From the NCBI RefSeq assembly GCF_027587195.1, contig NZ_JAPDDP010000083.1:1-32901 (forward strand): a DNA stretch of 32,901 nt, given 5' to 3'. Shown piece by piece: positions 6,201 to 17,091 of the stretch (positions within the stretch are counted from its first letter, which is position 1; each line of letters opens with the position of its first letter). Position numbers and translations under genes: made by a program. The DNA comes from Solirubrobacter phytolaccae (GTDB taxonomy: Bacteria > Actinomycetota > Thermoleophilia > Solirubrobacterales > Solirubrobacteraceae). The notes below the pieces were generated by a model. It saw only the letters and a program-made list of their open reading frames with translations, was not told where the DNA came from and ran no database searches.

Positions 6201-6312
6201 GCTCGAGGCCAGGCTGCGCGACGGGCGGCGCCTGCGCTGGACGCGCTCGTACCGGACCTGCACGACCAAGCTCCCGCCGTCCAACCGGCTGAGCGACCGC
6301 GACGCGCTCTAG
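3268..6312 (+). CDS. Secreted protein with four DUF11 repeats; N-terminus probably frameshifted
   Basis: About 1014 residues from the first GTG. After an Ala-rich presumed signal end (ALALLTFPSVARA) comes a globular region of about 330 residues with FAGLYWGG and DVTAIVRTAGPGDYTVANVQ, like the N-terminal domain often found ahead of DUF11 arrays. Four DUF11/CARDB-like beta domains follow, beginning near residues 366 (IAVTKQ), 495 (VAVTKR), 617 (VDLEVSK) and 758 (TDIAISK). Then come a proline-rich linker (about 890-917) and a basic Ig-like domain with one Cys at each end. There is no LPXTG and no membrane anchor. The start is doubtful: no good signal n-region exists in this frame, but ATG 3308 in another frame gives MAGRIAVVG, which would join perfectly if one G were added at 3331-3334. 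An adhesin or surface structural role is likely. Confidence 0.85.
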   Translation: MLDEPVSRRLPCGHGGTDRRGGALALLTFPSVARAERPFSARFAQNTQGDIALAANTLLSCVGTEPACPAARAGSSSPISGANNNARVMTYVDIDADPATFASSTAALSLPTDARILFAGLYWGGRTAAGTGGAPAPDPAARGTVWLQAPGDDAYRVLSASAPVDTAGETYQGFLDVTAIVRTAGPGDYTVANVQAGTGRSDGQLAGWTLVVAYGDGGAPPRSLAVFDGLQQVGSSSAGVTIPLSGFRTPSSGPVRSRVGVVVYEGDRGTTGDGATLQGAAGPVALTNIANPATNAFNSTITRDGSDAGTRTPAYANQLGFDADVFSTTNVLGNGQTSTQVRLTTNGDAYQPGVVTIATELFAPRIAVTKQVSRESASLGDELTYTTTIANTGEDVATQVDFDDALPAGVAPLPGTLTVDGTPVPDPTGGALRVADLPPGATRTVAFRVRIAADGIATGTVLENVAEVAFTATDLGTRDLVRSAPARTRVLVPDVAVTKRHTPDFVVGVPSTYTIEVRNAGEAPTSGEVRVSDTLPAGLAPGAVTAPGWTCTAPPALSCTRADALAPGETFPPIELVVTPQLGAGDVSNTVTVDATPDGHAANDAFTDAGAASLAVVDLEVSKLTVSRPSQSPSGFIPGERIEFAVTVRNNGPDTAREVGIADLAPVSLVIDRAATGAPYPCTYPPAPVPGTYVECQVGTLEPGESRTIPVVATLATTLPDYPSNSEEVNRAATSSLAGEYDFTNNLAESTFPTLPVTDIAISKRAEPAEVPEGGLVTYTLVVRNDGPAVADVFFADTLPDELLDPEVTIAGGTGDCTLEPFPDVTERPIPQCVIPQMEVGGERTITIRTRVALGTAGRTLPNFAAVSPDAAEPDFTDNTANASVLVIAAPPPETPDPTAVPQPGTPAPAAPPPVTVETTCRSQRTFAIRLRERRGRVVRSARVLVNGRRVATFRRADGRWTAKVDLRGLPAGTYAVELEARLRDGRRLRWTRSYRTCTTKLPPSNRLSDRDAL

Positions 6313-15178: not shown

Positions 15179-15221
15179 CTACCGAAGGCGGCGACATAAC
15201 CCCGGTCGCGGTTACGCGGCG

Positions 15222-15249
15222 ATGACAGCTGCCCCCGTCCGGGTATGAG
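15222..15249 (+). promoter_or_regulatory. Possible promoter of the small membrane gene
   Basis: ATGACA (15222-15227), 16 bp, then TATGAG (15244-15249), 11 bp before ATG 15261. This is a modest match and would give a near-leaderless transcript, although GGAG also sits just before the ATG. Confidence 0.3.
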
Positions 15250-15260
15250 AATCGGCGGAG

Positions 15261-15581
15261 ATGGACAGCTCGATCAGCGATGACGACGACTGGCCCGTCC
15301 GCGCGATCGTGGTCGTGCTCGCGTGCCTCGCCGGGGCGGTCGCGGCGCTCGAGTCGCTGATCGTGTTCCTCGTGCTCGTCTGGGCCGATGACGACCACGG
15401 GAACCTCAACCCGGACGCCGCGCTCGTGCTCCGCGGGGCCTTCTACGTGCTGGCCCCGGCGGCGCTGGTGGGCGCGATCCTCACCTGGGAGCTGCGCTGG
15501 CGGCGCGTCGCCCGGATCGTGACCGTGCTCGTCGCGGTGCTCGGCGCCGCCGGTTGGTGGCTCGTCACGCACCACGTCTAG
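15261..15581 (+). CDS. Small three-helix membrane protein
   Basis: 106 residues with an acidic N-terminus (MDSSISDDDDW). Three hydrophobic helices follow: AIVVVLACLAGAVAALESLIVFLVLVWA, GAFYVLAPAALVGAILTW and VTVLVAVLGAAGWWLV. No family is recognised. It is divergent from gap. Its TAG stop (15579-15581) lies inside the left arm of the inverted-repeat element, so the last residues and the stop may date from that insertion. Confidence 0.65.
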   Translation: MDSSISDDDDWPVRAIVVVLACLAGAVAALESLIVFLVLVWADDDHGNLNPDAALVLRGAFYVLAPAALVGAILTWELRWRRVARIVTVLVAVLGAAGWWLVTHHV

Positions 15582-15745
15582 TGTCGCGATTCAGAAGTTC
15601 GCGGGCCGCTACCGGACGTCTCGCCGCGCCTGGCGGCCGCCGGCGATCCCGCACGTACACCCGGTATGCGCTGGAATCACCGCCGGACCCAGCCACGACG
15701 ATCGGGCCCGCTATCGACACGCGAACTTCCGACTCGCGACACTAG
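15578..15745. mobile_element. 168-bp element with 26-bp terminal inverted repeats (MITE-like)
   Basis: The left end (15578-15603) and right end (15720-15745) are inverted copies of each other over 26 bp with two mismatches. Both outer ends begin CTAGTGTCGCGA and both inner ends read GAAGTTCGCG. No credible coding frame lies between them. CTAG at each outer edge is compatible with a 4-bp CTAG or 2-bp TA target duplication, as used by IS5-like and IS630/mariner-like transposons. The size and lack of genes suit a non-autonomous MITE. Each end supplies the TAG stop of the gene running into it. A large bidirectional terminator is the alternative reading. Confidence 0.6.
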
Positions 15746-16479
15746 GCGGCGACCACCGCCACCCCGGTGCGGCCGCCGTCCACGTCGAGGACGACGCCGT
15801 GCACGAAGGCCGACTCGTCGCTCGCCAGGTAGACCGCGGCGGGGGCGATCGCCTCCGGCGTGCCGAGGTCCGCGGCGGGCGTGCCGCGCATCATCACGGC
15901 GCTCGGGTTGCCCGGCTCCTGGATCACCCCGGGCGAGATGGCGTTCACGCGCACGCCCTGCGGCCCGTACAGCGCGGAGTAGGCGCGGGTCATCGACTCG
16001 ACGGCGCCCTTGGTGCCGGTGTAGACCGGGCTCGGAACACCGAGCCGAGCGACCCACGAGCCGAGGTTGACGATCGCGCCGCCTCCGCGCTCGGCCATCC
16101 GCGGCGCGACGGCCTCGATCAGGAAGTGCGGAGCCTTCACGTTGACCGCGAACATCCGGTCGAACCAGCCCTCGTCGATGACGACGTCGGCCGACGAGGG
16201 GTACGTGGCGGCGCTGTTGACGAGGATGTCGATGCGGCCGCCGAGCGCGTCGGCGGCGGCGTGCGCCAGGGTCTCCGAGGCCGCGGGTGAGCCGTCGAGG
16301 TCGGCGGCGATGAACCGGCCGCCGCTCGCCGCCGCGACCTCCGCCCCACGGGCCGCGTCGCGGCCGCTGACCACGACCTGGGCGCCCTCCTCGCCGAACG
16401 CCAGCGCGATCGCGCGGCCGATGTTGCTGGTGGCGCCGGTGATCAGCGCGGTCTTGCCTTTAAGTCGATTGGACTGCAT
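15742..16479 (-). CDS. Short-chain dehydrogenase/reductase (SDR)
   Basis: 245 residues, classical SDR. Cofactor motif TALITGATSNIGRAIA (residues 10-25), NSAATY in place of NNAG, the catalytic Tyr-Lys as YTGTK, a Ser 13 residues before the Tyr (NLGSWVARLG), and the closing VLDVDGGRTG. The substrate is unknown. The start at ATG 16479 is set by the family N-terminus; a longer in-frame extension to 16890 shadows the TetR gene. It is transcribed divergently from a TetR regulator across 39 bp that hold two operator palindromes, one covering this ATG. Its TAG stop lies in the right end of the MITE-like element. Confidence 0.92.
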   Translation of the reverse strand: MQSNRLKGKTALITGATSNIGRAIALAFGEEGAQVVVSGRDAARGAEVAAASGGRFIAADLDGSPAASETLAHAAADALGGRIDILVNSAATYPSSADVVIDEGWFDRMFAVNVKAPHFLIEAVAPRMAERGGGAIVNLGSWVARLGVPSPVYTGTKGAVESMTRAYSALYGPQGVRVNAISPGVIQEPGNPSAVMMRGTPAADLGTPEAIAPAAVYLASDESAFVHGVVLDVDGGRTGVAVVAA

Positions 16480-16485
16480 GGTCCA
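16470..16485. promoter_or_regulatory. TetR operator copy 1, over the SDR start codon
   Basis: TGGAC-TGCATG-GTCCA is an inverted repeat with 5-bp arms containing the SDR ATG. It shares the TGGAC/GTCCA core with the second copy 25 bp away, so one regulator probably binds both. Confidence 0.6.
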
Positions 16486-16491
16486 GAACTG

Positions 16492-16513
16492 TACTGGACT
16501 ACGCAGTCCAGTA
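16492..16513. promoter_or_regulatory. TetR operator copy 2, perfect palindrome
   Basis: TACTGGACT-ACGC-AGTCCAGTA: 9-bp perfect arms around a 4-bp centre, 5 bp before the TetR ATG. A possible minus-strand -10 box TACAGT (16493-16488) abuts it. The layout fits repression of both SDR and tetR. Confidence 0.75.
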
Positions 16514-16518
16514 TCCTG

Positions 16519-17091
16519 ATGGGCATGCCGGCGACGACAGCGAAGGGCGCAGCGACGCGGTCGCGGATCGTGCAGACCGCGGCCGACCTCGTGCTCGAGC
16601 GCGGCGTCGGCGGCACGTCGCTCGACGACATCCGCGCCGGCACGGGCACCAGCAAGAGCCAGCTCTTCCACTACTTCCCGGCCGGCAAGGCCGAGCTGGT
16701 CGAGGCCATCGCGGCCTTCCAGAGCGAGCGGGTGCTCGAGGCGCAGCGCCCACACCTGGACGAGCTCGACAGCCTCGAGAGCTGGGAGCGCTGGCGGGAC
16801 GCGGTGCTCGCGCACTACGGCGCCCAGAAGCACCTTGCGTGCCCGATCAGCGCGCTGACGATGGAGGCGGGGGTCGACGCGTCCGCTCACATGGAGCGCT
16901 GGCAGGCATCCATCGAGGCGGGCGTGCGGCGGATGGGCGTCGACGACGACGGGCGCACCGCGCTCGCGATCTTCGCGGCGCTGCAGGGCGGGCTGCTGCT
17001 GATGCGGGCGTCGCAGTCGCTGGAGCCGCTGCGCGCGGCGCTGGACGGCGCGCTGGTCATCCTCCGGGAACGAGCAGCACCTTCCCGTTGA
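16519..17091 (+). CDS. TetR/AcrR-family regulator
   Basis: 190 residues. N-terminal HTH: SRIVQTAADLVLERGVGGTSLDDIRAGTGTSKSQLFHYFPAGKAELVEAI (residues 15-64). The C-terminal ligand domain includes ACPISALTMEAG, like the TetR_C_16/YxaF-type group that often ends its helix with GCP or CPI. It is divergent from the SDR gene, which is its likely target. ATG 16525 is an alternative start. Its 3' end overlaps the convergent MDR gene by 35 bp. Confidence 0.92.
   Translation: MGMPATTAKGAATRSRIVQTAADLVLERGVGGTSLDDIRAGTGTSKSQLFHYFPAGKAELVEAIAAFQSERVLEAQRPHLDELDSLESWERWRDAVLAHYGAQKHLACPISALTMEAGVDASAHMERWQASIEAGVRRMGVDDDGRTALAIFAALQGGLLLMRASQSLEPLRAALDGALVILRERAAPSR

What the first reader, a model, noticed from the sequence alone, without database searches (positions are those of the whole stretch)
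15578..15745. Short inverted-repeat element whose two ends supply the stop codons of both flanking genes
The 26-bp ends match in inverted orientation with only two mismatches and begin with CTAG. The TAG of the left gene (15579-15581) and the TAG of the SDR gene (15742-15744, minus strand) both lie in these ends. Removing the element and one CTAG leaves two convergent genes sharing a single CTAG stop palindrome, exactly the arrangement seen at 6309-6312. This suggests insertion into a shared CTAG stop site, a target that does no harm to either protein.
Basis: partly seen in the sequence, partly recalled or inferred. Interest (0 to 1): 0.68.

Follow-up and report, generated by a model that had tools for sequence, protein, structure and literature searches.

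The report
Mobile hairpin inserted at gene stops
A 168-base jumping DNA element lands on the short sequence CTAG, which in this bacterium often ends genes, so it splits two genes apart while each keeps a stop; unusually, its copies keep mutating in ways that preserve a long hairpin on one strand only, as a working RNA would.

Summary
Window 15578-15745 is a 168-bp element with 26-bp inverted ends (2 mismatches) whose CTAG ends supply the TAG stops of both flanking genes. It is a non-autonomous mobile element (MITE): 11 full copies in the genome, full copies in 4 of 6 congeners, and empty sites for other copies, one reading exactly GG-CTAG-CC in four relatives. Its ends match IS630-family transposons, a family reported to prefer TA in CTAG. 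Of 30 aligned copies (28 genus, 2 other genera) 25 put an in-frame stop exactly at an end, 6 at both. The proposed shared-CTAG ancestor cannot be shown at the window locus, where two relatives lack the left gene and the element; another copy shows it as CTAA. Stop-sparing CTAG insertion has precedent (TnRErm46).

Less expected: copies fold into one full-length hairpin kept on one strand. G-U variants outnumber A-C 33 to 7 by column pairs; nine Crossiella copies have 95 G-U cells and no A-C. An orientation-free test over 16 lineages agrees (0 of 5000 simulations), while control hairpins show no bias. This suggests selection on RNA or one DNA strand; a role is not shown.

The parts
15578..15745 (.). 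Whole element including CTAG at both ends (164 bp plus one duplicated CTAG)
   Evidence: 11 full copies in own genome, the window's included; exact empty site of another copy
15578..15603 (+). Left terminal inverted repeat, 26 bp; IS630-type end; supplies TAG of left gene
15720..15745 (-). Right terminal inverted repeat, 26 bp; supplies TAG of SDR gene on the minus strand
   Evidence: this version shares 23 of 26 bases with the left end of the Roseomonas IS630-type transposon L265
15578..15581 (.). Left CTAG: junction of target TA and element G (model)
   Evidence: duplication model; TA in place in 20 of 30 copies, outer base C in 14 of those 20
15742..15745 (.). Right CTAG: junction of element C and target TA (model)
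   Evidence: intact CTAG in 25 of 30 copies
15578..15745 (-). Full-length hairpin as read on the minus strand, G-U pairs included
15261..15581 (+). Left gene, 106-aa ORF with coding-type codon positions, no Pfam match, no match in 60 relatives at E 0.001
15742..16890 (-). Right gene, SDR-family dehydrogenase; last residues nearly those of G002 and G004, stop TAG instead of TAA
15213..15242 (-). Remnant copy of the SDR 3' end with the TAA stop seen in relatives

Best explanation
The element is a non-autonomous miniature transposon (MITE) mobilised in trans by an IS630/Tc1-mariner-type transposase that recognises the 22-26-bp ends and inserts into the TA of CTAG, duplicating the TA. Because the element begins with G and ends with C, each junction reads TAG outward, so an insertion into the TA of a stop codon leaves a stop for the gene on either side (anatomy and empty sites: shown; transposase: inferred from matching ends). 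In this high-GC genome CTAG is rare, and insertions are found mainly at gene ends. The element body is a single hairpin kept paired on one strand by G-U wobbles and compensatory changes; the most likely reason is that the hairpin matters as RNA (for example as a dsRNA-like stem in transcripts that run through it, or in a transcript of the element), or as a strand-specific single-stranded DNA hairpin. That last step is inferred.
For: Copies: 11 full in G000, the ten others 87-96% identical to the window's, plus two diverged (L012, L014) and a 33-bp remnant (L017); full copies in 4 of 6 congeners, none found in G001 and G006 (13 candidates scored per genome). Empty sites: the L010 copy is GG-CTAG-CC in G002, G004, G001 and G006; L009 is TTCTAGG in G002; L011 is GCTAAC in G002; of 10 non-window copies, 6 have alignments spanning the site in G002. 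Ends: L265 (1195 bp, IS630-type transposase in two frames) and L323 (1171 bp, 361-aa ORF, Pfam DDE_3 E 3.4e-21) carry these ends with CTAG or CTAA; 5 of 22 DDE_3 loci of the order show CTAG-flanked inverted ends. Planctomycete Poly30 has about 28 near-full-length copies, three pairs in tandem sharing one CTAG. Hairpin: minus strand more stable by 21-49 kcal/mol in 30 of 30 copies; 57 double-change cells against 10.7 (sd 2.7) shuffled; one-strand wobble.
Against: No IS630 transposase found in the own genome; in the genus only a 56-aa match in G005, so the partner is absent now or was never resident. No clean empty site for the window copy. The wobble strand has no clear orientation relative to genes (a gene reads into it in 20 of 30 copies, into the other strand in 17 of 30), which speaks against a simple 3'-UTR role of that strand. 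No promoter- or terminator-like match in the region. Poly30 shows only a weak bias among new variants (6 G-U against 4 A-C), and L109, L110, L114, L252, L312 show little or none. The 30 copies are related, so their counts are not independent.
Confidence: 0.85

Rival explanations
1. Conserved bidirectional transcription terminator of the two convergent genes, not a mobile element.
For: Strong hairpin on both strands; 28 of 30 copies have a gene reading toward at least one end.
Against: Multicopy with empty sites; only one pair of insertions shared at both flanks; no T-run terminator match; two copies have no gene reading toward them.
Confidence: 0.04
2. REP/BIME-like repeat moved by a Y1 (RAYT-type) single-strand transposase that cuts beside a CTAG-like tetranucleotide.
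For: Y1_Tnp genes occur in G000 and 5 of 6 congeners; hairpin on one strand; tetranucleotide at the ends.
Against: No element end (up to 5 mismatches) in any of 30 Y1 loci, which reach about 1.5 kb to each side, while 4 of 22 DDE_3 loci had one: L131 at a transposon edge, L123 and L132 just past the transposase ORF, L126 a 5-mismatch match that may be chance. Y1 genes not found in G009, G015, G020, G023 and G058, which carry elements (G015 and G020 are incomplete genomes).
Confidence: 0.04
3. The hairpin symmetry and double changes come from intramolecular template switching (quasi-palindrome correction) or a strand-biased mutation process, not from selection on RNA.
For: In nine Crossiella copies distinct double changes (10) are more frequent than single wobble changes (7), and some are transversions, which stepwise evolution would make rare; correction of long inverted repeats in this way is recalled, not looked up.
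Against: Such correction acts on DNA and does not by itself explain why G-U is kept and A-C is not; both C-to-T (25) and A-to-G (8) types contribute; control hairpins with the same ends show no one-strand bias, though with few mismatches each. A transcription-linked deamination bias would still imply a transcribed strand.
Confidence: 0.35
4. IS481-family derivative, since that family also targets CTAG.
For: IS481-type TnRErm46 uses NCTAGN with stop-sparing insertion (PMC6794481, passages).
Against: Duplication is at most CTAG: the L010 site has different bases outside CTAG at the two junctions; ends match IS630 transposons and not the TnRErm46 end quoted in that paper.
Confidence: 0.02

Closest known systems
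IS630 / Tc1-mariner family (ISY100, IS630)
   Same: TA target duplicated (PMC2170065, passages); IS630 reported to prefer TA in 5'-CTAG-3' (title of Tenzen and Ohtsubo 1991, seen only in the reference list of PMC2170065); ends and CTAG flanks match IS630-type transposons here.
   Different: No transposase in the element; single long hairpin body.
RUP of Streptococcus pneumoniae
   Same: Short element proposed to be moved by an IS630 transposase at TA sites (PMC2229807 and PMC3049150, passages).
   Different: 107 bp; no one-strand wobble mentioned in the passages read; other phylum.
TnRErm46 (IS481 family, Rhodococcus equi)
   Same: Targets CTAG, which supplies TAG stops for the transposase and for some target genes (PMC6794481, passages).
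   Different: Transposon with its own genes, 6-bp NCTAGN duplication, other transposase family.
Correia/NEMIS, ERIC, YPAL and other bacterial MITEs
   Same: About 100-200 bp, mostly TA at the ends, transcripts predicted as long stem-loops; NEMIS RNA proposed to be cut by RNase III (PMC2229807, passages).
   Different: Sequences were not compared here; strand-specific wobble conservation not mentioned in the passages read.
CIR repeats of Caulobacter
   Same: Two-arm hairpin layout and GANTC motif, like the two-hairpin relatives found here (PMC2229807, passages; L214 and L228).
   Different: About 110 bp and listed without terminal inverted repeats in that review; the window element is a single hairpin. 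Sequences not compared.

Membership tests
IS630-type MITE | Terminal inverted repeats matching a known IS630-family transposon | tested here: met
   L265 left end 23/26 and right 19/26, L323 21/26 and 17/26 identical to the window right-end sequence; both carry IS630-type transposase sequence (L323 confirmed by Pfam; L265 by eye)
IS630-type MITE | Insertion at TA (in CTAG) with its duplication | tested here: met
   Exact empty site of L010 copy in four genomes; tandem copies sharing CTAG in Poly30. Whether TA or CTAG is duplicated cannot be told when the target is CTAG
IS630-type MITE | Multicopy and too short to encode a transposase | tested here: met
   168 bp; 11 full copies
IS630-type MITE | Autonomous partner in the same genome (usual, not required) | tested here: not met
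   0 DDE_3 matches in G000 and its six congeners; protein search finds only a 56-aa match in G005
IS630-type MITE | Movement by the transposase in trans | not testable with these tools
   needs an assay
REP/RAYT system | Repeats flanking or near a Y1 transposase gene | tested here: not met
   0 of 30 Y1 loci with an end
IS481-derived element | 6-bp NCTAGN direct repeat | tested here: not met
   bases outside CTAG differ at the two junctions of L010
Intrinsic terminator | GC-rich stem followed by T run | tested here: not met
   0 found in 15400-15900
Known RNA family (Rfam 15) | Match at gathering score | tested here: not met
   0 matches in the window
Structured RNA | Covariation beyond shuffled and slid controls | tested here: met
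   20 pairs and 57 cells with double changes against 6.8 and 10.7 shuffled; 3-9 pairs and 3-12 cells when slid; relatedness of copies inflates the shuffle control, and a DNA hairpin would give the same
Structured RNA | Transcript observed | not testable with these tools
   no RNA data

The most novel reading that the evidence does not exclude
There is a class of IS630-linked mobile elements, present in Actinobacteria and probably also in Planctomycetes and Gammaproteobacteria, whose body is a roughly 165-168-nt hairpin selected as a single-stranded molecule of one polarity: sequence turns over almost completely between lineages while length and one-strand pairing, with G-U but not A-C, are kept. 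The hairpin strand would then have a job in the element's own life cycle (transcript or single-stranded transposition substrate), and not only in the host genes beside it.
Probability: 0.35. Interest if true: 0.75.

Novelty: new variant of a known kind. Interest (0 to 1): 0.5.

Why it matters
It shows how a transposable element can spread in dense, high-GC genomes with little damage to genes: it aims at a motif that is rare there and rebuilds a stop codon on both sides. The one-strand wobble conservation, if confirmed, would mean that a hairpin made only of transposon ends and filler is selected as RNA or single-stranded DNA, which would open a testable question about how such tiny elements move or persist in genomes that hold no matching transposase.

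Tried and rejected
Plasmid collection, distant blastn: no match. Y1/RAYT idea: rejected. IS481 idea: rejected by the empty site. Terminator and promoter scans: nothing. Rfam: nothing in the window. The pooled control (131 G-U to 139.5 A-C in 124 half-hairpins) proves nothing by itself, because the orientation of each control element is arbitrary and pooling would hide a bias; I replaced it by an orientation-free test. The right CTAG is better kept than the left (TA in place 25 against 20 of 30; the outer base is G in 25 of 25 on the right, C in only 14 of 20 on the left); gene orientation does not explain it, and I leave it unexplained. A strict two-end pattern across the phylum found only the window copy in 396 genomes; it demands zero mismatches at both ends and misses the G023 copy, so it is a poor measure of spread. 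A covariance-model search was not attempted. The viral-contig scan gave 7 contigs with an end, not followed beyond size. The control half-hairpins are all elements of 160-172 bp among those 77 (65) minus L236, L311 and L317, 62 in all, not sorted by taxon; L214 and L299 among them can also fold full length. In one search the Poly30 copies were paired by position only, which puts the inner part out of register (529 of 2100 cells are neither Watson-Crick nor G-U nor A-C; pooled cells 255 G-U, 205 A-C), so only its variant list is used; 25 of about 28 copies entered.

Full report
What is there. The element at 15578-15745 has 26-bp inverted ends with two mismatches, begins and ends with CTAG, and gives the TAG stops of the 106-aa ORF on its left and of the SDR gene on its right. 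The same CTAG overlap of two convergent stops exists at 6309-6312. CTAG is rare here: 8 in 32,901 bases against 86 expected from base composition and 26 from a model that keeps the frequencies of CTA and TAG, and two of the eight are the element's own. The element folds as one hairpin over its whole length, better on the minus strand (z -8.5) than on the plus strand (z -5.85).

It is a repeated, mobile element. The own genome holds 11 full copies, the window's and ten at 87-96% identity to it (40 of 157 first-look candidates were scored), two diverged relatives (L012, L014) and a 33-bp remnant flanked by CTAG, apparently at another gene end (L017). A pattern search for the end found 24 matches; of the 22 with at most two mismatches all but one lie in these full copies. 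In the genus, G002, G003, G004 and G005 carry 6, 3, 3 and 5 full copies, plus fragments, and none was found in G001 and G006 (13 candidates scored per genome, so these are lower bounds). With one copy each from two other genera of the family (G023, G015) this makes the 30 copies used below. Comparing 900 bp of both flanks of the 30, one pair of insertions (L007 in G000, L084 in G004) is shared on both sides and one (L087, L104) on one side.

Empty sites. The ten own copies other than the window's were turned into joined flanks and searched in the genus. In G002, alignments span the site for six of ten (copies L002, L003, L008, L009, L010, L011). The cleanest is L010: four relatives read GG-CTAG-CC where the filled site reads GG-CTAG-element-CTAG-CC (two of the four, G001 and G006, look nearly identical to each other there). 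L009 is TTCTAGG in G002. For L003, L008 and L002 the site is empty but the target bases differ now. For the window copy, G002 and G004 lack the ORF and the element; the SDR gene there ends TAA after nearly the same residues, and a 30-bp remnant of that end is still present in the window at 15213-15242. SDR is also less similar to these relatives (88% and 79%) than the region before it (95% and 94%), so ORF, element and SDR may have come in together by recombination; this is inference.

How it inserts. Five of 22 DDE_3 loci of the order show CTAG-flanked inverted ends around the transposase (L122, L125, L126, L130, L131). Among them two IS630-type transposons carry the motif at both ends: L265 (Roseomonas, 1195 bp, transposase in two frames) and L323 (Halomonas MAG, 1171 bp, a 361-aa ORF with DDE_3 at E 3.4e-21, whose own stop codon is the TAG of its end); the second end matches with 2 and 4 mismatches. 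IS630-family transposition duplicates TA (PMC2170065, passages), and a preference for TA in CTAG is the title of a 1991 paper that I saw only in that reference list. No such transposase was found in G000 or the congeners, apart from a 56-aa match in G005.

Why it does little harm. The element starts with G and ends with C, so TA from the target plus that base reads TAG outward at both ends. With genes called by codon-position composition (score at least 20), of 30 copies 9 lie between convergent genes, 19 beside one gene end (14 with the other side reading away, 5 with the other side unclear) and 2 between divergent genes; 25 have an in-frame stop exactly at an end (in 22 copies at least one of these is a TAG), and 6 at both ends. 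Without the threshold the figures are 14, 14 and 2, and by hand 26 and 7 for the stops. The same trick has been described for an IS481-type transposon in Rhodococcus equi (PMC6794481, passages), so the principle is not new.

The hairpin. In 30 of 30 copies the minus strand folds better, by 21-49 kcal/mol. RNAalifold on the minus-strand alignment gives 47 pairs, 20 with double changes. Against 500 shuffles there are 57 double-change cells for 10.7 expected, and sliding the partners by 1-3 columns gives 3-12. To avoid choosing pairs that suit one strand, I aligned each element to its own reverse complement with symmetric scores: summed over the 30 copies, G-U 295 and A-C 65.5. By column pairs whose commonest state is a Watson-Crick pair, 33 have a G-U variant and 7 an A-C variant. 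Other lineages: G015 12:0, G023 10:0, L012 12:0, L014 15:0, L111 7:0, L112 4:0, L108 3:0, L113 10:2, L236 10:0, L311 11:0, L317 8:2; but L109 7:4, L110 3:2, L114 3:2, L115 3:1, L252 4:3, L312 2:1 (for those outside the alignment the lower-energy strand was taken, which favours an excess). An orientation-free test avoids that choice: with one element per lineage (16), the larger class sums to 112 of 131, for 83.4 (sd 3.5) expected if both classes were equally likely, 0 of 5000 simulations as high; some of these lineages share interior sequence, so they are not fully independent. Control half-hairpins with the same ends, mostly alphaproteobacterial, give 207 of 268 for 202.5 (sd 4.6) expected, 939 of 5000 as high, though they have few mismatches each, and 5 of the 16 halves with four or more such mismatches are one-sided. 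The strongest single set is Crossiella: nine full copies with 95 G-U cells and no A-C; distinct variants are 10 double Watson-Crick changes, 7 single changes to G-U, none to A-C, 2 to mismatch. Poly30, a planctomycete with about 28 near-full-length copies, has a weak bias among new variants, 6 against 4.

Reading of the hairpin. One-strand pairing points to selection on RNA or on one DNA strand. It does not match a simple role in the untranslated region of the neighbour, because genes read into the element from both sides to a similar degree (20 and 17 of 30). Double changes being at least as common as single ones in Crossiella suggests that one arm is sometimes copied from the other, a DNA process; the lack of A-C still asks for a strand-specific filter. 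I hold selection or filtering of one strand likely and its purpose open.

Spread and size. Of 77 elements with two ends (from 125 loci), 65 are 163-171 bp. The alphaproteobacterial ones looked at in detail (L214, L228) can form two inverted hairpins, each bounded by CTAG. In Poly30 three pairs of copies share a single CTAG (7446121-7446452, 1530305-1530636, 4799535-4799866), which shows the element using its own end as a target.

Literature. Seven searches in an open-access library; in their listings and in the passages read I found no description of this family or of one-strand wobble in MITEs. Only passages of those papers were read, and papers outside that library were not seen.

Noticed in passing
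window 15261-15581: 106-aa ORF with strong coding-type codon positions but no Pfam match and no match in 60 relatives.
   Followed up: partly
window 15213-15242 and 15743-15772: Both stretches correspond to the same 3' end of the SDR gene in G002; the first is a remnant with the TAA stop, suggesting that ORF, element and SDR arrived as a block.
   Followed up: partly
L214, L228, L299 and about 60 other loci: Elements of 163-171 bp with the same ends, mostly in Alphaproteobacteria; L214 and L228 can form two inverted hairpins of about 75 bp, each bounded by CTAG; the ends contain GANTC.
   Followed up: partly
L362-L389 (Planctomycetes bacterium Poly30): About 28 near-full-length copies, most 95-99% identical, three tandem pairs sharing one CTAG, several with the same flanks and so probably inside another repeat; looks recently active.
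   Followed up: partly
L323:2185-2187: The stop codon of the IS630-type transposase is the TAG of its own terminal repeat.
   Followed up: no
30 aligned copies: The base outside TA is always G at the right end (25 of 25) but C in only 14 of 20 at the left end, an asymmetry without explanation.
   Followed up: partly
G000:C4:13803-14129 and G000:C149:21207-21530: Two Y1-type transposase genes in the own genome, and Y1 genes in five of six congeners; whether they have REP-like partners was not looked into.
   Followed up: no
L328-L334: Seven viral contigs carry the end motif; L333 has a 165-bp element.
   Followed up: no
window, whole: CTAG is depleted about tenfold against base composition (8 seen, 86 expected).
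   Followed up: no
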